A program made the position numbers and the translations under genes. DNA of 64,000 nucleotides from Pelagerythrobacter rhizovicinus (GTDB lineage Bacteria > Pseudomonadota > Alphaproteobacteria > Sphingomonadales > Sphingomonadaceae). The stretch spans positions 372,001 to 436,000 of the forward strand of contig NZ_SDPV01000002.1 in the NCBI RefSeq assembly GCF_004135625.1, in the 5' to 3' direction. How positions within the stretch are numbered: the stretch's first letter is position 1; the number at the start of each line of letters is the position of its first letter. The notes beneath the pieces are model-generated. The model did no database searches. It worked only from the letters and a program-made list of their open reading frames with translations, and was not told the DNA's origin. Positions 34,219-49,489 of the stretch are shown one piece after another.

Positions 34219-34683
34219 TCAATCCAGCGGCAACTCCGTCGTCGCCTTGATCTCCGACAGGGCGACGGTGGAATTGATCTCCTGAACGCCGGGCAACTTG
34301 CTGAGCTGATCGAAGAAGAAGCGTTCGTAGGCGTCGATGTCCTTCGCGACGATCCGCAGCATGAAATCCATCGTCCCCATCAGGACGTAGGCATCGAGAA
34401 CTTCGGGGAAGCCGCGGATCGTCTCGCTGAACTCGTCGAGATTGGCGCGCCCGTGTGCATTGAGCTTCACCTGGGCGAAGACATGCGCGTTGAGGCCGAC
34501 CTTGCGCCGGTCGACGATCGCCACGCGCTTGCGGATGTAGCCCTCGCGCTCGAGCCGGTCGATGCGGCGCCAGCAGGGGGAGGCGGACAGGCCGACCCGC
34601 TCGGCAATCTGCGCCGTCGTTTGATTCGCGTCGCGCTGCAATTCGCGGAGAATCTTTCTCTCGTATCGGTCGAGTTGGGTCAT
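34219..34683 (-). CDS. Lrp/AsnC-family transcriptional regulator
   Basis: 154 residues from ATG 34683 (MTQLDRYERKILRELQRDAN); the frame extends to 34746 without conserved residues. A winged helix-turn-helix occupies residues 5-55 (QIAERVGLSASPCWRRIDRLEREG), followed by the RAM ligand-binding domain (AYVLMGTMDFMLRIVAKDIDAYERF). The family senses amino acids, often leucine. It is divergent from leucine dehydrogenase, 128 bp apart, so it most likely controls that gene and itself. Confidence 0.93.
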   Translation of the reverse strand: MTQLDRYERKILRELQRDANQTTAQIAERVGLSASPCWRRIDRLEREGYIRKRVAIVDRRKVGLNAHVFAQVKLNAHGRANLDEFSETIRGFPEVLDAYVLMGTMDFMLRIVAKDIDAYERFFFDQLSKLPGVQEINSTVALSEIKATTELPLD

Positions 34684-34811
34684 CCGTTTCGTATAGCCGG
34701 ATTCTGGGGGTAAAAACATTCCGTAAATGGGCCACCTAGCCACCAAAGCGATGAAGTTTCTCCAGCAAACCGGTGCGATGATCTGCGCAACCTCATGAAG
34801 GAGAGACTTGC
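34684..34811. promoter_or_regulatory. Divergent Lrp / leucine dehydrogenase control region
   Basis: This 128-bp gap lies between the start codons of the Lrp-type regulator and the dehydrogenase. It is more A+T-rich than the coding DNA around it and includes the dehydrogenase ribosome site GAAGGAGAGA before 34812. It is the natural place for Lrp binding; no specific operator sequence can be named. Confidence 0.5.
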
Positions 34812-35864
34812 ATGGTTGCCCGCCCCGCCCGCCTGACGCCGCCGCTGCAATGCGTGCCGCTGCGCGATCCCGAAAGCGATCTCGAGGGCGTGATCGTCAT
34901 CCACTCGACCGCGCTTGGGCCGGGGGCTGGCGGATGCCGCTTCTGGAGCTACCCCGACATGGACCGCGCGCAGGCAGACGCCATGCGGCTGGCCGAAGGG
35001 ATGAGTTACAAGAACGCGCTCGCCGGTCTGCCGCTTGGCGGGGCCAAGGCGGTCCTGCGCAAGCCGGAGGGAGCCTTCGACCGCACCCGCCTGTTCCGCG
35101 CCTTCGGCCGCGCGGTCGAGGAACTCGGCGGGCGTTATGTCACGGCCGAAGATGTCGGCACTTCGGTCGCCGACATGCAGGAGGTCGCCAAGGCGACGCG
35201 CCATGTGGCGGGCCTGCCGCCCGCCGAGGGACGCGCAGGCGGCGACCCTTCGCCGTGGACGGCGCTGGGGGTGTTCGAGTCAATGCGGGAGGCTGCGGCC
35301 TTCGCGCTCGGCAGCGAACTTTCCGGGCTGACCGTTGCGGTCCAGGGGACCGGCAACGTCGGCGCGGATCTGTGCCGTCACCTCGCGGAAGCGGGCGCGC
35401 GACTGGTGATCGCCGATCCGGACCCGCGCCGGCGCGAGGAACTGCGCGCAGCGCTTGGCGCGAGAGTCGTCGACGTCAACGAGATCGCCGAGGTCGAGGC
35501 GGACGTGTTCGCCCCCTGCGCCCTCGGCGGCGTGCTGAACCGCGAGAGCGTCGGCAAACTCAGGGTGCGGCTGGTCTGCGGGGCGGCGAACAACCAGCTC
35601 GCCAGCCCCGACGTCGGCGCCATGCTGCTCGACCGCGGGATCGCCTACGTGCCCGACTACGTCGCGAATGCGGGCGGGATCATCAGCGTTTCCGCCGAGT
35701 ATCTGGGCGAAACCGAAACCGACGTTGCGCAGCGGGTCGCCACCATTGCGCCGCGGGTCGCCGAAATCCTTGAACGCGCGGCGCATGAAAACCGCTCGCC
35801 CGCCGCCGTTGCCGACGAAATGGCCGAAGAGGTCATCGCCCGGGCGCAGCGAGCCGCGGCCTGA
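34812..35864 (+). CDS. Leucine dehydrogenase-type amino-acid dehydrogenase
   Basis: 350 residues. The family motif GMSYKNALAGLPLGGAKAV (residues 63-81) supplies Lys67 and the catalytic Lys79. A Rossmann domain follows with VAVQGTGNVGADLCRHL. The late segment YVPDYVANAGGIISVSAEYLG is typical of leucine/phenylalanine dehydrogenases. The enzyme oxidatively deaminates a branched-chain or aromatic amino acid to its oxoacid with NAD+. That could feed the branched-chain-type E1 enzyme elsewhere in the window; the link is only inference. Divergent Lrp probably regulates it. The ACT-like gene lies 10 bp downstream on the same strand. Confidence 0.93.
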   Translation: MVARPARLTPPLQCVPLRDPESDLEGVIVIHSTALGPGAGGCRFWSYPDMDRAQADAMRLAEGMSYKNALAGLPLGGAKAVLRKPEGAFDRTRLFRAFGRAVEELGGRYVTAEDVGTSVADMQEVAKATRHVAGLPPAEGRAGGDPSPWTALGVFESMREAAAFALGSELSGLTVAVQGTGNVGADLCRHLAEAGARLVIADPDPRRREELRAALGARVVDVNEIAEVEADVFAPCALGGVLNRESVGKLRVRLVCGAANNQLASPDVGAMLLDRGIAYVPDYVANAGGIISVSAEYLGETETDVAQRVATIAPRVAEILERAAHENRSPAAVADEMAEEVIARAQRAAA

Positions 35865-35874
35865 GGCGCACCCG

Positions 35875-36120
35875 ATGCACCGGTTCCATATCGACGCGAT
35901 TGCCGATCCGCAGTCGCTGCCGCGCGTGGCCGGTGCGTTCGCGCAGCGGGGGATCGTTCCCGATAGCCTTTCCGCTCGCTTCGACGGCGACACCGTAAGG
36001 ATCGAAGTGGCGATCTCGGGGCTGCACGCCCGGCAGGCGGCGATAATCGCCGCGAAGCTGGGCGAAACCGTCACGGCGATCGCAGTAAGGCTCGAGGCGG
36101 TGGAGGAAGTCTTCGCCTAG
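35875..36120 (+). CDS. Small ACT-domain-like protein
   Basis: 81 residues from ATG 35875 (MHRFHIDAIADPQSLPRVAG); the open frame back to 35668 shadows the dehydrogenase. The pattern strand-helix-strand-strand-helix-strand (LPRVAGAFAQRGIVPDSLSAR, VRIEVAISGLHARQAAIIAAK) resembles a lone ACT domain such as acetolactate synthase small subunit IlvM. ACT domains bind amino acids, often leucine or valine. Placed 10 bp after the dehydrogenase, it may be its regulatory partner; that is inference. Its 3' end overlaps the next convergent gene by 4 bp. Confidence 0.65.
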   Translation: MHRFHIDAIADPQSLPRVAGAFAQRGIVPDSLSARFDGDTVRIEVAISGLHARQAAIIAAKLGETVTAIAVRLEAVEEVFA

Positions 36121-37307
36121 TTCGCCCGCTCCCCGCCCTGCGCGGCGAGGATACGCAGCACGTTGCCGCTCCACATCTTCTCTATGTCGGCGTCGGAATA
36201 GCCCGCCGCCTTCAGCCGCTCGGTCACCTTGGGCAGCGCGGAGATATCCTCGATCCCCGTCAGGCCGCCGCCCCCGTCCCAGTCGGCACCGAAGCAGATA
36301 TGGTCCACCCCGCCGACTTCGATCGCGCGCAGGACCATGGCCATGTAGTCGTCGAAATCGGCGGCCCACATCGGCTCGGTCTTGTCGAGCTCGCGCCACT
36401 TGCGGGTCAGCTCGGCCTGCTCCTCCGGGGTCATCCCGCCGATCTGCTCGTACTGCCCGAACAGCTCGGCGCGCGCGGGCGACATGTTCATCTCCGACAT
36501 GAAGATGGTCGAGATGCACATCGCGCCGCCCTTGGCCGCGAGCTTGCGCAGCCGCTCCTCGTCGAGATTGCGCGGGTGGTCGTAGGCCGAGCGCAAGCTC
36601 GAATGCGAAAGGATGATCGGATATTTCGACAGCTCGAGAAGCTGATCGAACGCGGCGTCCGAGGAATGGCTGGCGTCGATGACGATGCCGAGCCGGTTCA
36701 TCTCCGCCACCCATTCCCTGCCGAGCGGGCTCAGGCCGTTCCAGCGCGCTTCCCCGGTCGCGGAATCGGCGAACTGGTTGGTTGCCGAATGGACCGGGCC
36801 GGCCATGCGCACGCCCTTATCGTAGAACTCCTGCAGCAGCGAGAGATCCTCGCCGAGCGGATAGCTGTTCTCGATCGCCTTGAACGCGATCAGCTTGCCT
36901 TCGCCGTTCAGCCGCCGCGCGTCCCCGGCCGTGAGCGCGGGGGCGATAGCATCGCCATGCTTCGCGATAACGCTGTCGATCAGGTCCGACCGCTCGCGCG
37001 CGAACGCCAGCGCGTCGGCATAGCCTTCCGGCGTCAACGGCCCTTGCTCAGTGTAGATGACGAAGAACCCGCCATCGAGCGCGCCGTCCTTCATCCGCGG
37101 AATATCGAGCTGGACGAGGTCGTTCGCCAGCGCGTGCCGATCGGCGAAGCTCCACCCTTCGCGCTCGAAATGGAGCGGCGTGTCGAGATGGGTGTCGAGC
37201 ACCAGCATATCCGCATGAACCGACGCGGGCTCGGCGGGTTTCTCCTCGCCTACGGCCGAGCAGGACGCGAGCGCCGTGGCGGCGAGCAGCAGGGCGGGCT
37301 TCTTCAT
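36117..37307 (-). CDS. M19 membrane dipeptidase, lipoprotein form
   Basis: 396 residues from ATG 37307. A lipoprotein signal (LLLAATALASC, Cys16) leads into the M19 (renal dipeptidase) fold. All zinc ligands are present: H40 and D42 (LDTHLDTPL), E146 (AIENSYP), H214 (DASHSSD), H235 (LSHSSLRS). A conserved Arg follows at 246 (DHPRNLD). The family cleaves dipeptides and accepts D-residues at the C-terminal position. It is last in a six-gene run whose members overlap by 4 bp or are a few bp apart. That run also holds DgcN-like, permease and TonB-receptor genes, suggesting a role in peptide breakdown at the envelope. Confidence 0.93.
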   Translation of the reverse strand: MKKPALLLAATALASCSAVGEEKPAEPASVHADMLVLDTHLDTPLHFEREGWSFADRHALANDLVQLDIPRMKDGALDGGFFVIYTEQGPLTPEGYADALAFARERSDLIDSVIAKHGDAIAPALTAGDARRLNGEGKLIAFKAIENSYPLGEDLSLLQEFYDKGVRMAGPVHSATNQFADSATGEARWNGLSPLGREWVAEMNRLGIVIDASHSSDAAFDQLLELSKYPIILSHSSLRSAYDHPRNLDEERLRKLAAKGGAMCISTIFMSEMNMSPARAELFGQYEQIGGMTPEEQAELTRKWRELDKTEPMWAADFDDYMAMVLRAIEVGGVDHICFGADWDGGGGLTGIEDISALPKVTERLKAAGYSDADIEKMWSGNVLRILAAQGGERAN

Positions 37308-38881
37308 TTCTTGTCCTCCACGGGCTTCAGGTCGAGATCCTGATAGTCCCAGCTGAAGTCGGCGATAACGCTCACCGGCTTCATCGTCACGCCGGTCACC
37401 TTGCCGTCCGCATCGAGCGCGAACGTGACGTAGGCAGGCTCGATCGCCGGATCGTCGAATTCGGTGACGAAGCTGTCGTATTGCCAATGCTTCAGGCGGC
37501 CGGCCATGTCGGGCGTGGTGGTGAAGTCGATCGTCAGCCCCTCGGGCGTCGCACCGATCACCACGTCCCCATACCAGGCATCGCGATACCGCCCGGCGTA
37601 GCGCGCAAGATCGAGCGAAGGGCCGACATCCACCGGAGAGGCTTTCGCCTGCTCGAGGTATTCCTTACCGCCCTGCAGCCGCGCTTCGAACCAGTCCTGC
37701 CACTTGGTCGTCCAGTCGAAATCGGGCTGATCGAGATAGTGGTCGAGCAGATCGTACGTCAGGCCGAGCATCATGCCGCTGTCCTCGCTGTTCATCATGA
37801 TCGCGAAGCCGACGTTGCGGTCCGGGATCATCACCACGCGCGTGATCGAGCCGAACACCCCGCCGCCGTGCTGGATGATCCGGTGCCCGCGATAGTCCTG
37901 GACCTGCCAGCCGAGCGCGTAGGCCTGGTAGGTCGGCTGCGCGGGCTTGAGGCTCTCGGGAAGCTCGGTGATCGGGATCGGCGTCACCGGAGTCCACATC
38001 TCCCTTGCCTGCTCCGCGCTGAACAGCCGTCCGCCGCCCGGCAGCGCGCCCTGCGCAAGCTGGATCTTGAGCCAGGCCGCCATGTCCTCCGCACTCAGTG
38101 CAAGGCCACCCGCAGGAGCGGCGTTGCGGCCGAGCTCGTCGCGCTCGTCGAGTACCTGCTGCGGGCCGAGCCCGCGCAACGCGCCCGAGAGACGCGCGTG
38201 CGGCCACGAACGGTTGGGCGTGCGGAACCGGTCCGTGCTGTCGCTGGTCGCGTTCTTCATCCCGCCCGCGCGTAGCACGCGGTCGCGCATGAAGACTTCC
38301 CAGGTCTGCCCGGTGACTTCCTCGATCAACTGGCCGGCCACGGCGTAGAGGATGTTGTCGTAGGCGTAAGCGGAGCGGAAACTCGTCTTCGGTTCGAGGA
38401 AAGCCACGCGCTCGACCGTCTCGCGGCGAGTGAGGCTGCTGCGCGGCACGAACAGCAGGTCGCCCTGCCCCAGCCCCAGACCGCTGCGATGGACGAGCAG
38501 ATCGCGGATCGTGATCTCGCGCGTGACCCAAGGGTCGTACATGCGGAACCAGGGCATGTGCTCGATGACCGGATCGTCCCACGCGATCTTGCCCTCGTCG
38601 ACCAGGATCGCGAGCGCGGCGGCGGTCATCGCCTTGCCGGTCGAGCCGGTCTGGAACAGCGTTTCGGCATCGACCGGCGTGGGCTCACCCAGCTTGCGCT
38701 CGCCCCAGCCGCGCGCGAGCGTCGTCTCCCCGTCCTCGACGATCGCGATCGAAACGCCGACCGCGCCGATCTCCTGCCGCAGCGCTTCGACGCTTTCGCC
38801 GATGTCGGTCGGCGGGTCGGCCAGCGCCGGCCCCGAGACGAGCAGCAGGAACGAAAGGGCAAGCAGGCGGACATGGCTCAT
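37304..38881 (-). CDS. Secreted serine hydrolase, beta-lactamase/D-aminopeptidase family (class C type)
   Basis: 525 residues from ATG 38881 (signal peptide MSHVRLLALSFLLLVSGPALA). Motifs of the class C fold are S80-T-G-K83 (nucleophile), Y174-D-N176 and a third motif near IIQHGGGVFG. The C-terminal 150 residues form an extra beta-rich domain. Members include beta-lactamase, esterases and D-aminopeptidases acting on D-amino-acid peptides; the substrate cannot be fixed by sequence. It overlaps the M19 gene and the permease gene by 4 bp each. Context favours D-amino-acid peptides. Confidence 0.88.
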   Translation of the reverse strand: MSHVRLLALSFLLLVSGPALADPPTDIGESVEALRQEIGAVGVSIAIVEDGETTLARGWGERKLGEPTPVDAETLFQTGSTGKAMTAAALAILVDEGKIAWDDPVIEHMPWFRMYDPWVTREITIRDLLVHRSGLGLGQGDLLFVPRSSLTRRETVERVAFLEPKTSFRSAYAYDNILYAVAGQLIEEVTGQTWEVFMRDRVLRAGGMKNATSDSTDRFRTPNRSWPHARLSGALRGLGPQQVLDERDELGRNAAPAGGLALSAEDMAAWLKIQLAQGALPGGGRLFSAEQAREMWTPVTPIPITELPESLKPAQPTYQAYALGWQVQDYRGHRIIQHGGGVFGSITRVVMIPDRNVGFAIMMNSEDSGMMLGLTYDLLDHYLDQPDFDWTTKWQDWFEARLQGGKEYLEQAKASPVDVGPSLDLARYAGRYRDAWYGDVVIGATPEGLTIDFTTTPDMAGRLKHWQYDSFVTEFDDPAIEPAYVTFALDADGKVTGVTMKPVSVIADFSWDYQDLDLKPVEDKK

Positions 38882-40017
38882 GACGATACCTCCGGTCGGG
38901 GTTCGCGGCCTCCGCGCAGGAGGCGATAAGTGCCGATGCCGAGCAGCGGCACCACGAACACGGCGAGAAACAGCCAGGCGAGGAAGCGGTAGCCGCTGGC
39001 GATCAGGTCGACGAGGCCCACGCGGGCCGCGATGAACATGCACCCGGCGAGGATCGCGGCGCCGATCAGCGCGCGCAGCGCCGGTCCCGGTGCGGCATGG
39101 CCGCGCGATTCCAGCGCCCCGCCGATACGCTCGTTGACGGCGTGGATCGCGCCGACGCCGCTTTCGAGCAGCGCCGTAAAGATCATCACCTGAAAGAGGA
39201 CGTGGAAGCCAGGCACCTCCATCTGGCGGAGCAGGAAATCGGACGGGAGCGTCTCGTTACCGATCGCCGGGTAGAAGGCCATCATCGCGACGAAGAAGAG
39301 GATCGCCGGCAGCATCGTCAGCGGCCCGGCCACGACACCGGCGATCAGCGCATCCCGCCGGCTGGTCAGGTGGCGCAGCACCGGCAGGATCACCACCGCG
39401 CCGACGATGTTGTAGCTGGCATAGGTCAGCCCGCCCGCCATCCAGTCCCCCGAAGGCGGCGGCGCAGCGGCGAAGCCCTGTCCGATCAGGTCGCCGAAGC
39501 TCGTCAGCGCGAAGGCAATGAACAGCGCGTAGACCGCGTAGATCAGCATCGAGGCATATTTGAACAGGCGCTCGACTCCGGCGGTTCCGAAGACGGTCGT
39601 CACGAGGATCGCCGCCGCGAGCAGGATCGAGCCGGCCAGTTCGGGCCAGCCGAAAGTCGCCGCCCCGATCGCGCCTGCCGCGGCGCCGAACACCGCGAGG
39701 ATCAGTACGACGAAGATCAGATAGGCAGCCTCGAACAGCACCCAGCCGGGGCCGAGCAGCCCCTTGAAGAAGCTGCGGTAGTCGTACGCGTTCATCGCCC
39801 GGGCGAGCGCGAAAGTGAGCGCGGCGACCACGCTCCAGATCAGCGTCGCCAGCAGCATTCCGGCGAGCCCGCCCCAGGGCCCAGCCGGCACGAAATACTC
39901 GGCCAGCTCGCGCCCCGTGGCGTAGCCGCCGCCGATGATCACCGCCTTGAGCGCGAAGCCGGGCAGCAGGAAGCGCTGGAACCAGTTCCCCCCGCCGACC
40001 GCCTCGCCCGCGCTCAT
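38878..40017 (-). CDS. YkvI-like integral membrane permease
   Basis: 379 residues with about ten hydrophobic helices from residue 20 to 370. The N-terminal KAVIIGGGYATGRELAEYFVPAG is the family hallmark of the YkvI group, which has a LeuT-like arrangement and is distantly related to amino-acid transporters. It is probably the inner-membrane uptake step for amino acid or dipeptide products of this locus. Its exact substrate is unknown. It is coupled to neighbours by 4-bp ATGA overlaps on both sides. Confidence 0.8.
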   Translation of the reverse strand: MSAGEAVGGGNWFQRFLLPGFALKAVIIGGGYATGRELAEYFVPAGPWGGLAGMLLATLIWSVVAALTFALARAMNAYDYRSFFKGLLGPGWVLFEAAYLIFVVLILAVFGAAAGAIGAATFGWPELAGSILLAAAILVTTVFGTAGVERLFKYASMLIYAVYALFIAFALTSFGDLIGQGFAAAPPPSGDWMAGGLTYASYNIVGAVVILPVLRHLTSRRDALIAGVVAGPLTMLPAILFFVAMMAFYPAIGNETLPSDFLLRQMEVPGFHVLFQVMIFTALLESGVGAIHAVNERIGGALESRGHAAPGPALRALIGAAILAGCMFIAARVGLVDLIASGYRFLAWLFLAVFVVPLLGIGTYRLLRGGREPRPEVSS

Positions 40018-41054
40018 GCGAGGCAGCTATCGACGAGTTCGGCGAAAGCGGCCCCACCGCGGATCGGGTCGGCTACGGGGATATTGAGCCGCTCACGCTC
40101 CGCGGCCATCAGCGCCCCCGCCTCGTCTGCGCTCAAGCTCGAGGTATTGAGGCTGACGCCGCCGCAGCGGATCGCCGGATTGGTGCGGCCGCCGAGACGG
40201 ATCGTGAGATCGACCACCTCCTCGACCGAGGGCAAAGCGAAGTCTTCCAGACCCAGGATCACCTTGCGCGTGGGATCGTGGCAGACGACGAACACGTCCG
40301 GCTGGCTGCCGTGCAGCAGGCCCAGCGAGACCGCCGCATAGGCCGGGTTGAAGATCGAACCCTGCCCTTCGATCACGTCCCAGTGAGCGGCGGGCGCGTC
40401 GGGACTCAGTATCTCGGCCGCTCCCGATTCGAAATCGGACACGACCGCATCCATCGGTATGCCGCCGCCCGCGATCATGATGCCCGTCTGGCCCGTCGCA
40501 CGAAAATCGGCGTCGATGCCGCGTTCGACGAAAGCCCGGTGCAGCGCGAGTGCGGTGTACTTCTTGCCCAGCGCGCAATCGGTGCCGACGGTCAGCAGCC
40601 GCTTGCCGCTGCGCTTGCGCCCGGTGCCGACCGGAATGCCCGGCGGCGGACTGCGCACGTTGATCAGCCGCCGCCCTGTGCGCCGCGCGGCGTCGGCCAG
40701 CGCGGGAATGCTGTCGAGCCGGACGTGGAGGCCGCTGACGATATCGAGTCCCGCCTCCATCGCCTCGACCAGCGCCGCGACCCACCGTTCGCCGATCACC
40801 CCGCCCTGGTTGGCGACGCCGATCACCAGCGAGCGGGCGCCTGCGTCCCGCGCCTCGGCGGGGGTCATGCGCGGCAGCCCGGTCGATACTGCGCAGCCGT
40901 CTACCCCGAACTCGCCGACGCAGCGGTCGGCCGCCCAGTCGGCCAGCCCGAACGCGGTCTTGGCAAAGCTCGGCTCGGTCGTATCGCCGAGGAACAGCAG
41001 ATAGGGCTGCGGCAGCACCATGGCGTCGGCCGGCCGGCCGATCGGAGCGTTCAT
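40014..41054 (-). CDS. DUF1611 / DgcN-type protein (D-glutamate pathway)
   Basis: 346 residues from ATG 41054; the frame continues to 41210 into the receptor gene's tail. The N-terminal half is Rossmann-like. The C-terminal half has a P-loop-like motif GTDCALGKKYTA (157-168), then TGQTGIMIAGGGIPMDAVVSDF and HWDVIEGQGSIFNP, the DUF1611 hallmarks. In marine bacteria DUF1611 protein DgcN is a D-glutamate N-acetyltransferase working with DgcA, an N-acetyl-glutamate racemase. A DgcA-like epimerase is encoded at 44477-45502, supporting that reading. The DgcN name here is by family, not proof. Confidence 0.8.
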   Translation of the reverse strand: MNAPIGRPADAMVLPQPYLLFLGDTTEPSFAKTAFGLADWAADRCVGEFGVDGCAVSTGLPRMTPAEARDAGARSLVIGVANQGGVIGERWVAALVEAMEAGLDIVSGLHVRLDSIPALADAARRTGRRLINVRSPPPGIPVGTGRKRSGKRLLTVGTDCALGKKYTALALHRAFVERGIDADFRATGQTGIMIAGGGIPMDAVVSDFESGAAEILSPDAPAAHWDVIEGQGSIFNPAYAAVSLGLLHGSQPDVFVVCHDPTRKVILGLEDFALPSVEEVVDLTIRLGGRTNPAIRCGGVSLNTSSLSADEAGALMAAERERLNIPVADPIRGGAAFAELVDSCLA

Positions 41055-41073
41055 CTCGTCCACCCCTCCCCGT

Positions 41074-43263
41074 TCAAAAGGCCATGTCGACCGCAAGGCC
41101 GATCGTGCGAGGTTGCAGCGGTGAAATGGCGAGAAAACTAGGCTGGTTGAGCCCGTCGGCCATCGTCGTCCGCCCCATCTCTCCCTCGTTGTCGAGCAGG
41201 TTGCGGGCATAGGCGCGCAATGTCCAATGATCGTTGAACGTCACCGAGGCGTTGAGATCCACCGAGGTGTACGGTTTCGCCCGGGCCGCGAGCGGATCGC
41301 TCTCCACCAGCGACAGACGGCTGCCTGCATGGCGGACACCGACGCCGAAGCTTCCGGTGTTGGAGGCACCGAGCGCGAACTCGTAGTCGGCACGCACCGC
41401 GCCGCTGAACTTGGGCACCGCGGGCAGGCGGTCGCCATCCACGCCGCTGATCTCGGGCACGTCCTCGCTCAGCGTCGCGTCGGTGTAGCTGCCGGTCGCG
41501 CTGAGCGTCAGGCCGGGCGAGGGCCGCAGTGCAATGCTTCCCTCGAAGCCCTTGCTCGTCGCCCGGCCTCCGTTGGCGCCGCCGGAGACCCCGCCGAAGG
41601 CGCGGACCACCTGGATGTCGGTCCAGTCCATCCAGAAGGCCGCGATGTCGAGCGAGATCATGCGGTCGGCGAGATCGCCTTTGAAGCCCACCTCGTAGTT
41701 TGTCATGCGGTCGGCATCGACGCTGGGCGGCACGTTGGGGACGATCACGTTGGGGCCGCCCGGCCGGTAGCCCGTGGCCACCCGCCCGTAGAGCATCGCG
41801 TTCTCGTTCAGGTGGATTTGCGGGCTGACGGAGAAGGTCCACACGCTTTCGGCCGATTCGCCGGGATCGTTCGCGCTCGGGACGATCGCACCCTCGCTGA
41901 TCTGCCGGAACGTCTGCTCGTTGCGCGCCCAGCGCAAGCCGGCCGTTATGTCGAACATGTCGCTGAACTTATAGGTGCCGTTACCGAACACCGCATATTC
42001 CTTGTAGGTCGCAGGCAAACCGACGGTCGCCAGCGGATCGAGCGCGGCGATCGGGTTGCCGTCCATGTCGAACGAGCGGACGAGTTGGGTGTTGCTGGTC
42101 GTCTCGTCGGTGAAGAAGCCGCCGATCATCCATTCGAAGCGTTCGCCGGTCGGCGATGCGAGCCGCACTTCCTGAGTCCACTTCTCAAGGCCCAGGTCCA
42201 GCGCGAAAGGCGTGATGCCGGGATCGATCGCCCCGCCCGTGAGCAGCGGGAAGAGAACGCCGAAGGCGTAGCTCGCATCCTGCAACTGCCGGCTCTGCGT
42301 CTCGCTGTAGGTGGTTGCCGACGTCAGTACGACCGGACCGAAGTCGTAGTCGATCGTCGCCGAGTAGTATTCAAGATCGATGTCGTAGGATTCGGGGACG
42401 AAGTTGTTGAACGAGCGTCCGTCGCCCAGCCGATTGCCGTCGAGATCGGCGGCGTAGAGCGCATTGCCGTCCGAATCGAGCGACTGCCAGATGCCCGCCA
42501 GCTTGACGCTGAGCTCCGGCGTCGGCTGCCACAGCAGGGCAACGCGGCCACCACGCTGTTCGTAATCGTTCTGGTCCTCCAGCGCGGGATTGTTGATGCT
42601 GTCGACCCAGCCCGGCGTGCTACGCCAGGCAAAGCTGCCGCTGATGGCCAGCTTGTCCTCGACGATCGGCACGTTGACCAGCGTCTGCGCGCCCCAGCCG
42701 AGCCCATCCCCTCCCTTGATGCTGAAGCCTTCGACTCCGCCCCGGACCCGGAACTCGCGCGTGTCGGGCTGCACCGTCACGTATTTCACAAGGCCGCCGA
42801 TCGAGCTCGCGCCATAGAGTGTGCCCTGAGGTCCCTTGAGCACTTCGACCCGCTCGAGATCGTAGGGCATGAGATCGATGGTGAAGGCCCCGGCACGATT
42901 GTAGATCGCGCTCGACCCGACCGGCGCGTCGTCGAGATAGATGCCCACCGTCTGCGCGGCGGAAATCGGCGCGACACCGCGCAAAGTGACGGTGGTCTGC
43001 CCCGGTGTGCCGGAGTTGGAGACCTGCATGCCGGGCACGTAGCCGGCGTAGTCGACCAGCGACGCAGCGCCTTGCTCCTGCAGTTCCTCCCCATCCACAA
43101 CGCTGATCGAGATCGGGACGTCCTGGATGTTCTGCGTCCGCTTCTGCGCGGTGACGACGATTTCGCCGTCCGTCACGGTTGCCGCCGCATCTTCCTGCGC
43201 CTGCGCCGGCATCGCCGCCGCGAAGGCGAGCACACTTCCTGCGATCCAAAGATTCTGCTTCAT
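41074..43263 (-). CDS. TonB-dependent receptor, D-amino-acid/peptide locus
   Basis: 729 residues. The signal peptide ends at AMPAQAQ-E, the TonB box is GEIVVTAQKR, and the plug reads NIQDVPISISVVDGEELQEQGA and TVTLRGVAPISAAQTVGIYLDDAPVGSS. The barrel ends GLAVDMAF. This plug resembles the large sphingomonad receptor class with RxxxxxQxVP motifs, which has very many paralogs. It is 4 bp downstream of the second M19 gene and 19 bp upstream of the DgcN-like gene on the same strand, so it is likely the uptake route for the locus substrate. Confidence 0.92.
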   Translation of the reverse strand: MKQNLWIAGSVLAFAAAMPAQAQEDAAATVTDGEIVVTAQKRTQNIQDVPISISVVDGEELQEQGAASLVDYAGYVPGMQVSNSGTPGQTTVTLRGVAPISAAQTVGIYLDDAPVGSSAIYNRAGAFTIDLMPYDLERVEVLKGPQGTLYGASSIGGLVKYVTVQPDTREFRVRGGVEGFSIKGGDGLGWGAQTLVNVPIVEDKLAISGSFAWRSTPGWVDSINNPALEDQNDYEQRGGRVALLWQPTPELSVKLAGIWQSLDSDGNALYAADLDGNRLGDGRSFNNFVPESYDIDLEYYSATIDYDFGPVVLTSATTYSETQSRQLQDASYAFGVLFPLLTGGAIDPGITPFALDLGLEKWTQEVRLASPTGERFEWMIGGFFTDETTSNTQLVRSFDMDGNPIAALDPLATVGLPATYKEYAVFGNGTYKFSDMFDITAGLRWARNEQTFRQISEGAIVPSANDPGESAESVWTFSVSPQIHLNENAMLYGRVATGYRPGGPNVIVPNVPPSVDADRMTNYEVGFKGDLADRMISLDIAAFWMDWTDIQVVRAFGGVSGGANGGRATSKGFEGSIALRPSPGLTLSATGSYTDATLSEDVPEISGVDGDRLPAVPKFSGAVRADYEFALGASNTGSFGVGVRHAGSRLSLVESDPLAARAKPYTSVDLNASVTFNDHWTLRAYARNLLDNEGEMGRTTMADGLNQPSFLAISPLQPRTIGLAVDMAF

Positions 43264-43267
43264 CGTC

Positions 43268-44410
43268 TCACCCCCACACTTGCGCGAGCAGCCGGCGGAA
43301 GTTGCCGCCGAGAACCGCCCGGATGTTGTCGTTGGAATAACCGCGGCGGATCAGTTCCTCGGTCAGATCGAAGATCTTGCGAGGGTGATCGAAGCCGTCG
43401 ATGTCGATCTTGTCGCGGAAGCCGTAGCTTCCCTTGTATCCCGCCTTCAGTGCCTCGTACTCTTCCGGCACCATGTCGTCGTAGCCGTGGAGGTCGGCGT
43501 CCGAGCCGATGCCCACATGCTCGATACCGACGAGTTTCGCGACGTGATCGATGTGATCGACCATGTGGCTCACGTTCGTCGGGTCGGTCGCGCGAATGAA
43601 CATCCGCACGCCGGTGATGCCCATCACCCCGCCCTTGGCCGCGAGCGCCTGGATCGCCTCGTCGGTCTTGACCCGCGGATGATCGACCAGCGCGCGCGCG
43701 TTGCTGTGCGTGATCGCAATCGGCCCTTTGGCGATGGCGATCGCATCGAGCGTCGTCCGGTCGCCGCAGTGCGACACGTCGACCAGCATGTTCGCCTCTT
43801 CCATGGCGGCGATGATCGCCGCGCCGAAATCGCTGACCCCGCCGTCGACGCGCTCGGTACTGCCCGAGCCGATCAGGTTCTGGCTGTTGTAAGTGAGCTG
43901 CGCACACCGCAGACCGAGGCCACGAAAGCGGGCGACGTCCTCCACCGTCTCGAACTGCTCGGCGTTCTGGATGCCCATGATAACCGCGCACTTGCCCTCG
44001 GCCTTGGCCCGGTCGAGATCCTCGACCCGGCCGGCGAGGGTGAAGACGTGACTGTTGCGGCCAACGAAGCCCTGCCACCCGGCAAGATATTCGAGCGCTT
44101 GCGCCTGGGCATCCGGCCCGCCGATACCGTACGCCGTATGAAAGCCGGTGATGCCGCTGGCATGGAATTCCGCCGCTTCGGCATCGGTCAGCCGGTGCGC
44201 GACATAGGCTGGGTTCATCGTGATCTTGAGCGGCGCGAGCATGTCGATGACGAGCGTTTCGGCCACGAGATCGACCGCACGACGCGAGTAGGTCCGCCCC
44301 GGCGCACCGGAGAAGGCGAATGCCCCCGTGGCGATCATCGGCGCCGCCACGGCCGCACCGATCGCACCCGCCATCACCGCGCGCCGCGTCGCGGGGAATG
44401 AACGCGCCAT
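43268..44410 (-). CDS. M19-family dipeptidase homolog, Tat signal, altered metal site
   Basis: 380 residues from ATG 44410 with GGAGGAAGGA before it. A Tat-type signal is present (ATRRAVMAGAIGAAVAAPM). The M19 fold is recognisable and H214 (DVSHCGD) and H235 (ITHSNAR) align with the zinc histidines. The usual N-terminal HxD is replaced (IDMLAPL, residues 55-61) and the bridging Glu position is Gln148 (IMGIQNAEQ). So the binuclear zinc site is probably incomplete; it may be a one-metal enzyme or a binding protein. Seen directly in sequence; consequence inferred. It is first in the six-gene operon and has the shared 21-bp operator 41 bp upstream. Confidence 0.85.
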   Translation of the reverse strand: MARSFPATRRAVMAGAIGAAVAAPMIATGAFAFSGAPGRTYSRRAVDLVAETLVIDMLAPLKITMNPAYVAHRLTDAEAAEFHASGITGFHTAYGIGGPDAQAQALEYLAGWQGFVGRNSHVFTLAGRVEDLDRAKAEGKCAVIMGIQNAEQFETVEDVARFRGLGLRCAQLTYNSQNLIGSGSTERVDGGVSDFGAAIIAAMEEANMLVDVSHCGDRTTLDAIAIAKGPIAITHSNARALVDHPRVKTDEAIQALAAKGGVMGITGVRMFIRATDPTNVSHMVDHIDHVAKLVGIEHVGIGSDADLHGYDDMVPEEYEALKAGYKGSYGFRDKIDIDGFDHPRKIFDLTEELIRRGYSNDNIRAVLGGNFRRLLAQVWG

Positions 44411-44442
44411 TCCTTCCTCCCTCAAGATTATCTGTTTTGTCG

Positions 44443-44471
44443 AGTATTTGTCCTGATTAGAAAATTGTCAA
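44443..44471 (-). promoter_or_regulatory. Promoter/operator for the dipeptidase operon
   Basis: On the minus strand TTGACA (44471-44466) and AATACT (44448-44443) are separated by exactly 17 bp. The block from TTGACA through the spacer to AATCAGGA matches the site at 47585-47605 in 20 of 21 positions. The -35 box therefore lies inside the shared block, so a protein bound there would compete with or help RNA polymerase. The likely regulator is the XRE-cupin protein at 47625-48248. Confidence 0.7.
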
Positions 44472-44476
44472 CCCGT

Positions 44477-45502
44477 TCAGGACACATTATCCATCTGGTA
44501 TCCCCAGACCTCGGGCGGACAGTGGATCATGCCGTCTCGGTAGCGGACGCCCGGCGTGCGATCGCGCGCCAGGAAGGTTGGCCCGTCGAGATCGACGATG
44601 TCGCAGAGCTGGCCCACAAGGTAGGAGGGCGCCATCGACAGGCTGGTGCCCATCATGTTGCCGACCATGACCTCGAGCCCGAGCTTCCGCGCCTGACGGG
44701 CGATCGCGAGCCCCTCGGTCAGCCCGCCGCACTTGTCGAGCTTGATGTTCACGACATCGAAGCGCCCGATCAGCGACGGCGTGTCCGCAAGCGACAGCGC
44801 GCTCTCGTCGGCGGCGAAGGGCAGCGGCCGCTTCAGTCCGTCCAGATCCCCCTCCCGTCCGCGCGGTAGAGGCTGTTCGAGGACCGCCACCCGATGCTCG
44901 ACCAGCACCTCCAGGAGGGCTGGAAGCGTCTTCCGGCGATAGCCCTGGTTGGCATCGACGCCGATCCAGGCCTGCGGCCGGGCCGCACGGATGGCCGCGA
45001 GGCGTGCGGCATCATCCTCGACGTCGCCCGTCAGCTTGACCTTGACCGGCGCCTGCGGATCGATGGCGAGCGAGGCGGCCGCCGTCGCCTCGGGCGTGTC
45101 GGCGCCGAGCGTCAACGTCGAACGCAGCGGGCGCGGCTCGGAGAGACCTGCCAGGTCCCACACCGGCCTGCCGGTGCGCTTGGCCTCGAGATCCCAGTAG
45201 GCGCAATCGAGCGCATTGCGCGCACCGCCCGGCGGCAGCAGCTCTTGCAGGTCCTCGCGCGTCGCCCCCGCCTCGATCGCGCCTCGCACCCGCTCCGCCT
45301 CGGCGAGCATGTGGTCCGCGTCGTCGCCGAGGTAGTAGACCCCCGCCCCCTCACCCCGCCCGCGATGCTCGCCGTCCGAGATCTCGGTGACGAGCAGCGC
45401 GGTTTCGGTAAACACGTGCCCGGCGATGCGGAACAGCTGATGATAGGGAAAGCGCTCGATCCGAAGATCGAGCGCCAGTTCCCGCTTCACGCCCGTGGCC
45501 AT
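44477..45502 (-). CDS. Dipeptide epimerase, enolase superfamily (DgcA-like)
   Basis: 341 residues from ATG 45502, sharing one base with the upstream stop. The muconate-lactonizing subgroup motifs are complete: KxK with K154/K156, D183 (GVDANQG), E209 (LEQPLP), D232 (AADES) and the acid/base K254 (NIKLDKCGG). The C-terminal DLD at 304-306 is the DxD motif that, in L-Ala-D/L-Glu epimerases, binds the free amino group of the dipeptide. It interconverts Glu stereochemistry in dipeptides or, as DgcA, N-acyl-glutamate. It sits with DgcN-like, dipeptidase and permease genes, which fits murein-peptide or D-Glu catabolism. Confidence 0.9.
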   Translation of the reverse strand: MATGVKRELALDLRIERFPYHQLFRIAGHVFTETALLVTEISDGEHRGRGEGAGVYYLGDDADHMLAEAERVRGAIEAGATREDLQELLPPGGARNALDCAYWDLEAKRTGRPVWDLAGLSEPRPLRSTLTLGADTPEATAAASLAIDPQAPVKVKLTGDVEDDAARLAAIRAARPQAWIGVDANQGYRRKTLPALLEVLVEHRVAVLEQPLPRGREGDLDGLKRPLPFAADESALSLADTPSLIGRFDVVNIKLDKCGGLTEGLAIARQARKLGLEVMVGNMMGTSLSMAPSYLVGQLCDIVDLDGPTFLARDRTPGVRYRDGMIHCPPEVWGYQMDNVS

Positions 45503-47481
45503 CAGTAGACCATCGAGAAGCCGTAGAGGTTGAAGGCGAACGTCACCCACACCAGCACCAGCGCCGCCAGCACGAGCAGCGCCCCGCCGACCTTCATCGT
45601 CCACCGCCGCCGGTCGCGGAAGCAGAGCCACAAGTGCCATGCGGACGCGGCGAGGAGGCCGACGGTTGCTATCGGCGTCAGTATGCGCAGCAGGATGATC
45701 AGCCAGTCGAGCGGGCCGCCGAGACTGCCGATGTCGCCCGAGAAGGTCACCACCAGCATGACCCAGCCGAAGACTGCGAGTAACACCAGCCAGGCGAAGA
45801 TGCGCGACAGGCGCCAGGCCTTGCGGGCATCGTTCTCGAGTGCGAACGCCGCCTGGAAATGCCGGCGAACGAGCGCGCGCACCGGCCAGGCGAGCGCGGC
45901 GAGAAGCACCAGCGCCAGTGCCAGGATCAGCGCAGGCATCAGCCAAGCGGTATTTGTGCCGGCAGACGCGGGCTCGAGAACCATGAAGGGCGACACCGCA
46001 TCGGTGCTCACGCGCACCACACGACCGTCCTTCACTTCGGCAGCCAGGCGCTCACCCGTGGCCGTGTCGACCCAGACGAACGGCTCGACCTCGACCCAGT
46101 CGCGCGCGGCCGCGCTGAGCCCGTCGAGCGCCGGCATGGCGATCTTGCCGTTCTCGTCCACCACGATCTCCAGCTGGCCCAGGAGGCCGAGCAGGCTCAT
46201 GAAGTTGGTGAACGCGCCGCGGCTCGACACGTAATGGCCGGCCACCATCGCGGCGTGCTCCCGGGCGGTCTCCGGATCGACGCGGCCGGTCGGTTCGGGA
46301 CCGGGCAGATAGCGGTCGGCAAACTCATGGAACAGGGCGCTGCGCAGCGCCTGCGCCCCACCTTCCTTGCCCGCGCTGTTGACCGAGACGAACAACCCGA
46401 TGTCGGCGTCGGGGAACAGCCAGAGATACGAGTGGAACCACTCGGTATCGCCGCCGTGGCCGATCGCCCGGCGGCCGTTGACCCACTGCTCGTAGAATCC
46501 GAGCGCCATCGTGTTGAGCGGCCCCACGCCCGGCGCACGATAGTCGTGCATCGTCCGCGCAGTTTCGGGCTGGAGCAAAGGCCCTCCTTCGTTGAGGTGC
46601 GCCATCATGAACTTGCCCATCGCCGCGCCCGACGCCGAGAGACTGCCGGCCGGCGCGGGAATGACGATCTCGAACGGCTTCGCCTTCTCGCCCACGGTCG
46701 GATAGCCGCTCGACATGTGCGGCTGCAGCGCCTCCGGAAGCGGCTGGCGGAAGGTTGCGTACCGCATCTCCAGCGGCGCGAAGATGTGCCGCTCGACATA
46801 GTCGTCGAACGGCTGCCCGCTCACGCGCTCAACAATATATCCGGCGAGTGCGGTTGCGTAGTTGGAGTAGGCCGGCGTGGTGCCCGGCGCGAAGACCCGC
46901 TCGGGCAGCGCTTCGCGGGCATAGTCCTGAAGCGGCATGACCGCGTCGGGATCGCTGCTGATCAGATGGCGGATCGATTCCTCGAACCCCGGGGTATGCG
47001 TGAGGATGTGCCGCAACGTGATCGGCTCGCCCTCATAGGGAGGAATCTCGAAGTCGAGATAGGCGTTCACGTCCTCGTCGAGATCGAGCTGGCCTGCCTC
47101 GACTTGTTGCATCACCGCCGTCCAGGTGAACAGCTTCGACACCGAGCCGGGGCGGAACAGCGTGGTCTGCGGGTCTACCGGCTTGCGCGAGGCGACATCG
47201 GCGAAGCCGTAGCCCTTCTGCAGCACTGGCCCATCGCCCCGCACGACCACGACGACAGCGCCTGCGATCTGCCCGCGATCGAGCGCGAAGGGCATGAAAC
47301 CATCGAGCCAGGCCTCGACGTCCGCTGCATCGAGCTCGGCCCGCTCGGCTTGTGCGGCCGAAGCCGGCGGTGCCGACCTCTCCGGCTGCTGCGACGGCTG
47401 CTGCGGCACCGGCCCCTGCGCGACCAGCGGCAGCGCCAGCAGCGCCGCCAGACCGATCATCAGCTTGCGAAGAACACGCAT
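45502..47481 (-). CDS. Serine hydrolase (class C beta-lactamase family) with C-terminal membrane domain
   Basis: 659 residues with a signal peptide (LMIGLAALLALPLVAQG) and a Gln/Pro-rich linker. The catalytic domain has S113-V-S-K116 and Y205-S-N207, then IGHGGDTEWF as the third motif. The last 150 residues contain about four hydrophobic helices (AWLMPALILALALVLLAALAW; LVLLAVFGWVMLVVTF; LLAASAWHLWLC; ALLVLAALVLVWVTF), so the enzyme is anchored at the membrane with its active site in the periplasm. It may be a D-aminopeptidase- or esterase-like member. Its promoter shares the 21-bp block with the dipeptidase operon. The epimerase follows with a 1-bp overlap. Confidence 0.88.
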   Translation of the reverse strand: MRVLRKLMIGLAALLALPLVAQGPVPQQPSQQPERSAPPASAAQAERAELDAADVEAWLDGFMPFALDRGQIAGAVVVVVRGDGPVLQKGYGFADVASRKPVDPQTTLFRPGSVSKLFTWTAVMQQVEAGQLDLDEDVNAYLDFEIPPYEGEPITLRHILTHTPGFEESIRHLISSDPDAVMPLQDYAREALPERVFAPGTTPAYSNYATALAGYIVERVSGQPFDDYVERHIFAPLEMRYATFRQPLPEALQPHMSSGYPTVGEKAKPFEIVIPAPAGSLSASGAAMGKFMMAHLNEGGPLLQPETARTMHDYRAPGVGPLNTMALGFYEQWVNGRRAIGHGGDTEWFHSYLWLFPDADIGLFVSVNSAGKEGGAQALRSALFHEFADRYLPGPEPTGRVDPETAREHAAMVAGHYVSSRGAFTNFMSLLGLLGQLEIVVDENGKIAMPALDGLSAAARDWVEVEPFVWVDTATGERLAAEVKDGRVVRVSTDAVSPFMVLEPASAGTNTAWLMPALILALALVLLAALAWPVRALVRRHFQAAFALENDARKAWRLSRIFAWLVLLAVFGWVMLVVTFSGDIGSLGGPLDWLIILLRILTPIATVGLLAASAWHLWLCFRDRRRWTMKVGGALLVLAALVLVWVTFAFNLYGFSMVY

Positions 47482-47576
47482 CGCTCTTTCCCCTCCTCTA
47501 CAACTCCGTTCGTCACACCTTGCAGCATGTCGAGCGAGCCCTTACCAAGGAACAATATCAGTTGACCCGATGGGGA

Positions 47577-47605
47577 CATAATGATCCTGATTGGAAAATT
47601 GTCAA
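47577..47605 (-). promoter_or_regulatory. Promoter/operator for the serine hydrolase-epimerase operon
   Basis: On the minus strand TTGACA (47605-47600) is followed after 17 bp by ATTATG (47582-47577). The block from TTGACA through ATTTTCCAATCAGGA repeats the 44451-44471 site with one difference. It lies about 96 bp before the serine hydrolase start and 20 bp before the XRE-cupin start on the other strand, so one bound regulator could control both directions. Confidence 0.7.
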
Positions 47606-47624
47606 ATAGGAGTTGGAAGATTTG

Positions 47625-48248
47625 ATGGCGGACGCGGCAAACCCGCCAACGCTCGGCTCGGTCCTGCGCGGCATCCGCTCGCGAAACGGCTGGACGCTCA
47701 AGGAGATGAGCGCGAAGTCGGGAATTCCGGTGTCGACGCTCTCGAAAGTCGAACATGACCGCCTGACGCTGAGCTACGACAAGCTCCAGCAGCTCAGCCA
47801 GCGGCTCAAGATCCGCATGGCCGATCTCTTTGCCGAGGGTACGGAGGAGAACGCGCCGCGGGTGACCGGCCGCCGCAGCATCGGCACGCTGGACCAGGCG
47901 GTGCGCGTCACCACCGACAACTACGATTACCACTATCTCTGCACCGATCTGCGCCAGAAGCGCATGATCCCGATCATCACTCGCATCCGCGCGCACAGCG
48001 CCCGCGAGTTCGGCGATCTCGTCCGTCATCAGGGCGAGGAGTTCATCTACGTGCTGGAAGGCCAGATCGAAGTGCATTCGGAATTCTACGACCCGGTCCT
48101 GCTTCGGGCCGGCGAGAGCATCTATCTCGATTCGTCGATGGGCCATGCCTATGTCGTGGCCAAGGGCTGCGACGAAGCCCTCGTCCTCGGCGTCTGCTCG
48201 AGCGCCGACGAAGGCCTGATGGACTCGCTGATGAACCTGCACGGCTGA
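47625..48248 (+). CDS. XRE-cupin transcriptional regulator
   Basis: 207 residues from ATG 47625; TTG codons at 47613 and 47622 are in-frame alternatives with an AGGAG just before 47613. An XRE helix-turn-helix (residues 10-67: TLKEMSAKSGIPVSTLSKVEHDRL) is joined to a C-terminal cupin (about 115-195: HQGEEFIYVLEGQIEVHS). Such proteins sense small ligands, often amino-acid-like, and regulate catabolic genes. It is divergent from the serine hydrolase-epimerase pair. The two matching 21-bp blocks, one in its own promoter region and one before the dipeptidase operon, are candidate binding sites. Confidence 0.9.
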   Translation: MADAANPPTLGSVLRGIRSRNGWTLKEMSAKSGIPVSTLSKVEHDRLTLSYDKLQQLSQRLKIRMADLFAEGTEENAPRVTGRRSIGTLDQAVRVTTDNYDYHYLCTDLRQKRMIPIITRIRAHSAREFGDLVRHQGEEFIYVLEGQIEVHSEFYDPVLLRAGESIYLDSSMGHAYVVAKGCDEALVLGVCSSADEGLMDSLMNLHG

Positions 48249-48402
48249 GGGTTCGCCCTGCAGCTGGACGACCGAAGATTCCACCCCGCCGATTATCGGC
48301 AATCACAGTTCCACTTTGCGCCGAATTCGCGGCGTTCTCGCCCGCACAGATACGCGCGGCCGCCGATTGACAACGAAGGACAGTTTCGCCACCGATTTTC
48401 GT

Positions 48403-49431: not shown

Positions 49432-49462
49432 GCGCACTGCGCGGCCGCGACAGATGACCAGG

Positions 49463-49489
49463 AGCGGCCCCTCCACAGGAAGGGCCGCT
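49463..49489. terminator. Hairpin between convergent lacI-type and receptor genes
   Basis: The stem AGCGGCCC / GGGCCGCT spans 49463-49470 and 49482-49489. It lies 32 bp after the LacI stop and 21 bp past the receptor stop. Neither side has a T run, so termination efficiency is doubtful. Confidence 0.45.

What the first reader, a model, noticed from the sequence alone, without database searches (positions are those of the whole stretch)
36117..48248. Compact locus for D-amino-acid-containing peptide scavenging with its own regulator
Two M19 dipeptidase homologs, two class C-type serine hydrolases, a TonB receptor, a YkvI-like permease, a DUF1611/DgcN-type protein and a complete enolase-superfamily dipeptide epimerase lie in two tightly packed minus-strand operons, with a divergent XRE-cupin regulator. 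DgcN plus DgcA-like proteins are known from D-glutamate use in marine bacteria, and the epimerase DxD motif (304-306) fits L-Ala-Glu dipeptides. Pairing them with outer-membrane uptake, two periplasmic serine hydrolases and an atypical M19 protein suggests a full murein-peptide route. I do not recall this combination being described as one system. Substrate and flow are inference.
Basis: partly seen in the sequence, partly recalled or inferred. Interest (0 to 1): 0.75.

Follow-up and report, generated by a model that had tools for sequence, protein, structure and literature searches.

The report
Operon for eating D-amino-acid peptides
A bacterium carries one tightly packed gene set with its own regulator, shared with many distant relatives, that looks built to import and break down peptides containing mirror-image (D) amino acids, but its key enzyme lacks residues expected for handling glutamate, so the target is probably a different D-amino acid.

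Summary
The set is widely conserved: of 56 named relatives with over 20 kb held, 39 have at least five of six core partners, in Alpha-, Beta- and Gammaproteobacteria. A 32-bp operator-like site occurs once in the genome. Partners fit scavenging of D-amino-acid-containing peptides: S12-type hydrolases, M19 proteins, often N-acyl-D-amino-acid-deacylase relatives or a peptide symporter. The D-glutamate/murein reading is not supported. DgcN and DgcA fall in a separate lineage, below NCBI's curated cut-offs; the epimerase has Gly28 and Tyr57 where E. coli L-Ala-D/L-Glu epimerase has arginines (Gly 79/80, Tyr 75/80 named relatives). Canonical loci of the order carry LysR (15/26) and a glutamate-type symporter (6/26); these loci carry neither (0/31). 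Best reading: a non-acidic D-amino acid is imported, N-acylated, racemised and deacylated. Substrate and chemistry are inferred; no enzyme was assayed.

The parts
36117..37307 (-). M19 dipeptidase A with the canonical motif (HLD, Glu, two His, Asp); lipobox LASC near the N-terminus
   Evidence: PF01244 294 bits; nearest solved chain 2rag, 410 bits; 4-bp overlap with next gene. Lipobox read by eye; the hydropathy scan flagged no segment
37304..38881 (-). SerH1: S12/class-C-type serine hydrolase with C-terminal DUF3471, N-terminal hydrophobic segment
   Evidence: PF00144 211 bits, PF11954 88 bits; PDB matches include ClbP peptidase (68 bits) and alkaline D-peptidase (49 bits); segment 3-21
38878..40017 (-).
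   Evidence: Nine hydrophobic segments; relatives in 22 of 31 lineage II loci and 0 of 26 canonical DgcN loci; no verified family or PDB match
40014..41054 (-). DgcN-like DUF1611 protein, predicted N-acyltransferase for a D-amino acid
   Evidence: NF041892 448 bits, cut-off 480; nearest solved chain 7xrj, 338 bits; lineage II
41074..43263 (-). TonB-dependent outer-membrane receptor
   Evidence: PF00593 and PF07715; a relative in 52 of 80 named loci
43268..44410 (-). M19 protein B, twin-arginine-like leader, HxD and one conserved Glu lost
   Evidence: PF01244 257 bits; 9 of 9 members lack HxD and have Gln for Glu; nearest solved chain 2i5g; leader read by eye
44477..45502 (-). DgcA/dipeptide-epimerase-like enolase-superfamily racemase with Gly28, Phe31, Tyr57 in the substrate loops
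   Evidence: NF042940 362 bits, cut-off 400; residue tallies; alignment to 4gfi, 1jpd, 3iji
45502..47481 (-). SerH2: S12-type serine hydrolase with N-terminal and about four C-terminal hydrophobic segments
   Evidence: PF00144 215 bits; segments; alkaline D-peptidase 4y7p third among PDB matches
47575..47606 (.). Conserved operator-like site between the divergent starts
   Evidence: Only match at up to 3 mismatches in window (0 expected) and genome; aligned in orthologues; scan of 80 loci
47613..48248 (+). XRE-cupin transcription regulator, divergent
   Evidence: PF01381 and PF07883; a relative in 67 of 80 named loci

Best explanation
One operon, controlled by the divergent XRE-cupin protein, for using extracellular peptides that contain a non-acidic (neutral or hydrophobic) D-amino acid. 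The TonB receptor brings peptides into the periplasm. The exported S12-type serine hydrolases and M19 proteins cut them; many relatives add an N-acyl-D-amino-acid-deacylase-like enzyme. The permease (and in many relatives a di/tripeptide symporter) carries D-amino acids or D-dipeptides into the cytoplasm. There the DgcN-like protein N-acylates the D-amino acid, the DgcA-like racemase inverts it, and a deacylase encoded elsewhere frees the L-amino acid. Shown: gene content, order, conservation, conserved site, lineage and residue changes. Inferred: localisation, substrate class, reaction order, regulator binding and ligand. Weakest step: whether the DgcA-like enzyme acts on N-acyl-D-amino acids, on dipeptides, or on both.
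For: Conserved set: 39 of 56 named loci over 20 kb hold at least 5 of 6 core partners, 26 hold all six. Lineage II against canonical DgcN loci of the order: permease 22/31 v 0/26, SerH2 20/31 v 3/26, SerH1 11/31 v 0/26, M19B 10/31 v 0/26, XRE-cupin 8/31 v 0/26, LysR 0/31 v 15/26, glutamate-type symporter 0/31 v 6/26. Deacylase relatives in 27 of 56 named loci, an M19 in 36. Epimerase: Gly28 21/21 v Arg 24/26; Phe31 21/21 v Lys or Arg 21/26; Tyr57 21/21 v Arg 16/26 and His 6/26; in named relatives Gly28 79/80, Tyr57 75/80, with K156, K257, D183, E209 80/80. NCBI cut-off of 400 bits: 5 of 5 tested lineage I epimerases above, 5 of 5 tested lineage II below. The same genome has a second locus pairing a glutamate-type symporter with LysR, a D-acylase-like amidohydrolase and a DAO-family protein. 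N-acylation of aromatic D-amino acids coupled to an enolase-superfamily racemase is published for other enzymes (Sakai 2006, as cited in PMC8762209, passages read).
Against: No assay. Only one dipeptide-epimerase-like gene was found in the genome, so it could still serve L-Ala-D-Glu. D-Glu contacts of DgcN were not mapped. No deacylase for the N-acyl-L product is in the operon. Deacylase relatives do not separate the lineages (19/31 v 9/26, p=0.06) and M19A is not enriched (4/31 v 1/26). Seven of 31 lineage II loci have no DgcA relative in the stretch and a few have only a distant enolase-superfamily relative. Six epimerase rows were dropped before the residue count; one of them (L051) has Arg28 with Tyr57. 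The 80 named loci were chosen for likeness to lineage II and about twenty are close relatives, so counts are not independent. The permease fold prediction never finished.
Confidence: 0.55

Rival explanations
1. One reading: a murein-peptide route in which L-Ala-D-Glu or D-Glu from peptidoglycan is imported and converted through DgcN and DgcA or by dipeptide epimerisation.
For: Best family names are DgcN and DgcA; M19 and S12-type enzymes fit D-residue peptides; only one epimerase-like gene found in the genome.
Against: Loop arginines replaced by Gly28 (79/80) and Tyr57 (75/80) in named relatives; LysR and glutamate-type symporter absent (0/31; 1 of 80 named loci each); no recognised murein-recycling gene in the operon or among the neighbours read (not exhaustive); both proteins below curated cut-offs.
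Confidence: 0.2
2. A dipeptide route: the DgcA-like enzyme epimerises imported X-D-Y dipeptides with a neutral second residue and cytoplasmic peptidases cut the L,L product; DgcN serves a side reaction.
For: A di/tripeptide symporter gene in 36 of 80 named loci (one representative scores TIGR00924 297 bits); DxD kept; a Thermotoga relative prefers L-Ala-Phe, -Tyr and -His (PMC5808125, passages read).
Against: The window operon has no symporter; DgcN is in 64 of 80 loci, more often than the symporter, which argues for N-acyl intermediates; DxD is equally kept in 26 of 26 canonical-lineage sequences.
Confidence: 0.2
3. The cluster degrades a particular D-residue natural product (cyclic peptide, lipopeptide or beta-lactam-derived fragment) rather than general D-peptides, in the manner of the microcystin mlr genes.
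For: Sphingopyxis mlr genes also combine peptide hydrolases with an oligopeptide-transporter-like protein (PMC6563193, passages read); a class-A-lactamase-like gene sits between DgcN and the permease in three Stenotrophomonas loci and one Caulobacter locus.
Against: Breadth across three classes argues for a common substrate; no product-specific enzyme was seen to be constant.
Confidence: 0.05

Closest known systems
DgcN-DgcA D-glutamate pathway (Yu et al. 2023, ISME J; not held; known from recall, the NCBIfam names and passages of citing papers PMC10845958 and PMC12363236)
   Same: Same two protein families, usually neighbours; N-acylation then racemisation of a D-amino acid (chemistry recalled)
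   Different: Here a separate lineage below the curated cut-offs, loop arginines replaced, other transporter and regulator, plus outer-membrane receptor and exported hydrolases
L-Ala-D/L-Glu epimerases YcjG and YkfB (PMC5808125, passages read)
   Same: Enolase-superfamily enzyme, the two catalytic lysines, metal ligands, DxD
   Different: Loop arginines absent; 233 bits against cut-off 343
N-succinylamino acid racemase pathway of Sakai et al. 2006 (seen only as cited in PMC8762209, passages read)
   Same: Works alike: a D-amino acid, aromatic ones included, is N-acylated and an enolase-superfamily racemase takes part in an irreversible D-to-L conversion
   Different: GNAT-type acyltransferase there, DUF1611 protein here; outer-membrane uptake and exported hydrolases are not part of it as far as I recall
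Microcystin mlr cluster of Sphingopyxis (PMC6563193, passages read)
   Same: Peptide hydrolases plus an oligopeptide-transporter-like protein; that microcystin holds D-residues is recalled
   Different: The four mlr genes include no epimerase or DgcN; homology of the hydrolases was not tested
M19 dipeptidase of PDB 2rag (Caulobacter, recalled)
   Same: M19A matches over residues 7-389 with 410 bits
   Different: Its gene neighbourhood was not examined

Membership tests
DgcA, N-acetyl-D-Glu racemase (NF042940) | Whole-protein score over curated cut-off of 400 bits | tested here: not met
   362 bits; five lineage II relatives 351-385 bits, five lineage I 426-458 (ten chosen of those in hand)
DgcA, N-acetyl-D-Glu racemase (NF042940) | Arginines in the N-terminal substrate loops, as in 1jpd, 4gfi and most of lineage I (role in Glu binding recalled) | tested here: not met
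   Gly28, Phe31, Tyr57
DgcA, N-acetyl-D-Glu racemase (NF042940) | Activity on N-acetyl-Glu | not testable with these tools
   Needs enzyme assay
DgcN, N-acetyltransferase (NF041892) | Whole-protein score over curated cut-off of 480 bits | tested here: not met
   448 bits; 21 of 26 lineage I and 1 of 31 lineage II rows over cut-off (rows matched by hand to clades)
DgcN, N-acetyltransferase (NF041892) | DUF1611 two-domain architecture | tested here: met
   PF17396 and PF07755 over cut-off
L-Ala-D/L-Glu epimerase (NF011708) | Score over curated cut-off of 343 bits | tested here: not met
   233 bits. Lineage I sequences straddle it: two of five over
L-Ala-D/L-Glu epimerase (NF011708) | Catalytic lysines, metal ligands and DxD (roles recalled) | tested here: met
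   K156, K257, D183, E209, D304, D306 in 80 of 80 named relatives; D232 in 21 of 21 of the order sample
Binuclear M19 dipeptidase: M19A | HxD, bridging Glu, two His, Asp (ligand roles recalled) | tested here: met
   Alignments
Binuclear M19 dipeptidase: M19B | HxD and bridging Glu | tested here: not met
   Absent in 9 of 9 members
Murein-peptide recycling locus | Amidase, LD-carboxypeptidase, AmpG, NagZ or Mpl-type partner | tested here: inconclusive
   None among the nine window genes with a family match (the permease has none); none seen in the 22 neighbour clusters read and the genes scanned. No dedicated search for these families was made
YkvI permease family | Match to a curated family or to B. 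subtilis YkvI | tested here: inconclusive
   No family match; the B. subtilis protein was not compared

The most novel reading that the evidence does not exclude
A second, widespread DgcN/DgcA lineage that converts non-acidic D-amino acids to L-amino acids by N-acylation and racemisation, built into an outer-membrane-to-cytoplasm operon for D-peptides with its own XRE-cupin regulator and operator, spanning Alpha-, Beta- and Gammaproteobacteria.
Probability: 0.45. Interest if true: 0.65.

Novelty: new variant of a known kind. Interest (0 to 1): 0.5.

Why it matters
D-amino acids are described as a widely distributed, recalcitrant part of marine dissolved organic matter (abstracts and passages of PMC10845958 and PMC12363236). 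If this reading is true, a DgcN gene is not by itself a sign of D-glutamate use: surveys that count it so may be mixing two pathways (whether any published count does was not checked). The second pathway has a testable substrate class, a candidate operator and a wide host range. The two lineages would also be a natural pair in which a change of substrate charge can be followed.

Tried and rejected
Leucine/tryptophan-type dehydrogenase plus Lrp next to the operon (34219-35864) as a clue to a hydrophobic substrate: a relative in 10 of 80 named loci, in more than one arrangement. But some match exists in 141 of 147 genomes of the order; the close relatives (over 350 bits) occur in 9, are adjacent to the operon in only 2 of the 4 that have it, and 5 of the 9 have no DgcN match. 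In one search it is 2/31 v 0/26, not significant. Kept only as a hint.

Di/tripeptide symporter and M19B as alternatives in one slot: p=0.013 over 56 loci, but p=0.18 without the first twenty, closely related, loci. Not claimed.

Flanking genes outside the core as a substrate clue: ten scanned (chemotaxis receptors, polyphosphate kinase, sulphate permease, FecR and others), no common theme.

Literature: no paper describing this operon appeared in the rows listed for DgcN+DgcA, DUF1611 with and without D-glutamate, N-acetyl-D-glutamate terms (15 of 820 listed), dipeptide epimerase terms (4 of 4, 12 of 55 and 15 of 617 listed) and YkvI. Only the held open-licence library was searched. One paper (PMC3605383) was searched for specificity residues and gave no passage.

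Structure of the permease: job accepted, still unfinished; not used. Structure of the epimerase was not accepted. No fold search was run.

Rows dropped before counts: four of 60 fetched DgcN loci (L051, L052, L054, L081); six epimerase rows (L051, L052, and four distant enolase-superfamily rows of L063, L064, L077, L092).


Full report
What is there. The stretch 36117-47481 holds eight minus-strand genes, and 47613-48248 holds a divergent XRE-cupin gene. In order of transcription: SerH2 (S12-type hydrolase with C-terminal hydrophobic segments), DgcA-like epimerase, M19B, TonB receptor, DgcN-like DUF1611 protein, permease, SerH1 (S12-type with DUF3471) and M19A. A hydropathy scan found no hydrophobic segment in the epimerase and the DgcN-like protein, one near the N-terminus of SerH1, SerH2 and M19B, and none in M19A. 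By eye M19A has a lipobox and M19B a twin-arginine-like leader. I infer that the first two are cytoplasmic and the other four exported.

Conservation in the order. A family search for DgcN in 147 genomes gave matches in 71 (114 rows). I fetched 60 of the rows, chosen for contig length, up to 19.5 kb each, and added the window. Trees of DgcN and DgcA show a lineage with the window genes and most permease-positive loci, and another of canonical type; the deepest splits are not all firmly supported. By the DgcN tree I counted 31 lineage II loci (window included) and 26 lineage I loci; four fetched loci were left out. Lineage II against lineage I: permease 22/31 v 0/26, SerH2 20/31 v 3/26, SerH1 11/31 v 0/26, TonB receptor 17/31 v 4/26, M19B 10/31 v 0/26, XRE-cupin 8/31 v 0/26, GntR 18/31 v 0/26, LysR 0/31 v 15/26, glutamate-type symporter 0/31 v 6/26. 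Not different: DgcA 24/31 v 24/26, M19A 4/31 v 1/26, symporter of the POT kind 3/31 v 0/26, any deacylase relative 19/31 v 9/26, leucine-type dehydrogenase 2/31 v 0/26. The query proteins come from the window and from a few of these loci, and the rows are related, so the p-values are only a guide.

Conservation further out. In the 80, relatives of SerH2 occur in 70, XRE-cupin in 67, DgcN in 64, permease in 55, TonB receptor in 52, SerH1 in 51, M19A in 36, a POT symporter in 36 and M19B in 26; LysR and the glutamate-type symporter in one each. Among the 56 loci longer than 20 kb, 39 have at least five of six core partners (XRE-cupin, SerH2, DgcN, permease, TonB receptor, SerH1) and 26 have all six; deacylase relatives occur in 27 and an M19 in 36. 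By class, at least five of six in 29 of 43 Alpha-, 4 of 4 Beta-, 4 of 7 Gamma- and 2 of 2 unresolved loci; the four Beta loci lack the permease and have the symporter.

Regulation. The region between the divergent starts contains GACATAATGATCCTGATTGGAAAATTGTCAAA at 47575-47606. It is the only match at up to three mismatches in the window (0 expected) and in the genome. Over 27 scored positions, 57 of 80 named loci have a site with eight mismatches or fewer, while the best in 80 singly shuffled loci has nine. Loci used to write the consensus match by construction; among the 65 not used, 14 have three or fewer and 42 eight or fewer. Of the 57, 48 lie within 220 bp of the XRE-cupin match. The other nine lie just before another operon gene: five before the TonB receptor (L130, L132, L138, L147, L165), two before M19B, one before DgcN, one before SerH2. 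I read this as a dedicated operator; binding is not shown. 23 loci have no such site.

Substrate. In one search the window epimerase aligns to E. coli L-Ala-D/L-Glu epimerase (1jpd) and to 4gfi. Both have Arg where the window has Gly28 and Phe31, and Arg where it has Tyr57; 3iji has Arg at column 31 only of the first two. In the order sample column 28 is Gly in 21 of 21 lineage II and Arg in 24 of 26 lineage I; column 31 Phe in 21 of 21 against Lys or Arg in 21 of 26; column 57 Tyr in 21 of 21 against Arg in 16 and His in 6 of 26. In the named relatives Gly28 is 79/80, Gly54 80/80, Phe31 76/80, Tyr57 75/80, and K156, K257, D183, E209 80/80. The 80 were chosen for likeness to lineage II, so they test constancy within it, not contrast. 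One dropped row, L051, has Arg28 with Tyr57. That these arginines hold the glutamate side chain is recalled from the structural literature and was not read here. DxD is kept in 80/80 and in 26/26 lineage I, so it does not point to Glu or to dipeptides. NCBI's curated cut-offs draw a similar line: five of five tested lineage I epimerases over 400 bits, five of five tested lineage II and the window below; for DgcN 21 of 26 lineage I and 1 of 31 lineage II rows are over 480 (matched by hand).

A second D-amino-acid locus in the same genome (L185) has a LysR 43% identical to that of a canonical locus, a D-acylase-like amidohydrolase, a glutamate-type symporter (PF00375, 397 bits), a DAO-family protein, a RidA-family protein and, by eye, a TonB receptor; a genome search found no second DgcN. 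That is where I would look first for D-glutamate use in this organism.

Mechanism. I propose uptake by the TonB receptor, cutting by exported hydrolases, import of a neutral D-amino acid, N-acylation, racemisation and deacylation. A published parallel is a GNAT-related enzyme that acylates aromatic D-amino acids, in a D-to-L pathway with an enolase-superfamily racemase (Sakai 2006, as cited in PMC8762209, passages read). The dipeptide route remains open: a Thermotoga relative prefers L-Ala-Phe, -Tyr and -His (PMC5808125, passages read). DgcN being more frequent than the symporter (64 against 36 of 80) makes me prefer the N-acyl route.

M19B. All nine aligned members lack HxD and carry Gln for the Glu of M19A, but keep two His and an Asp. 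It may be a one-metal enzyme or a binding protein; its conservation (49-82% identity to the window copy) speaks against decay.

Limits. Everything here is sequence comparison. The permease family, M19B activity, acyl donor, final deacylase and substrate are open. The best support is that neighbourhood, lineage, curated cut-offs and active-site residues agree in separating this operon from canonical DgcN-DgcA loci.

Noticed in passing
L185 (window genome, contig C1 1443500-1463400), 4135-14911: Second D-amino-acid locus: LysR, D-acylase-like amidohydrolase, glutamate-type symporter, DAO-family and RidA-family proteins, and by eye a TonB receptor; no DgcN or DgcA relative in the stretch.
   Followed up: partly
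L186 (window genome, contig C1 1588000-1607900), 6761-13527: Small look-alike cluster: cupin protein 36% like the regulator, M19 32% like M19B, a sodium:neurotransmitter-type symporter and by eye a TonB receptor; best operator match has 10 mismatches.
   Followed up: partly
L139 15792-16826; L162 18287-19288; L165 18147-19151; L176 17962-18969: Class-A-lactamase-like gene directly between DgcN and the permease. NCBIfam class A model over cut-off in the two tested, L139 and L165; by eye the omega-loop Glu is missing where the loop was printed (L139, L162, L165; consensus recalled).
   Followed up: partly
window 34219-36120: Lrp-type regulator, leucine/tryptophan-type dehydrogenase and a small unassigned gene beside the operon; the dehydrogenase recurs near it in 10 of 80 named loci but the link is weak overall.
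   Followed up: partly
window 48316-52503: A LacI-type regulator and a second TonB receptor follow the XRE-cupin gene, where 9 of the 13 loci L099-L111 (Sphingopyxis) have an N-acyl-D-amino-acid-deacylase-like gene (receptor by eye).
   Followed up: partly
L119, L121, L122, L123, L125, L126, L127, L136: An amidohydrolase cluster found in these 8 named loci; the L121 member, next to the epimerase, matches an Xaa-Pro dipeptidase model (NF051886 354 bits, cut-off 500).
   Followed up: no
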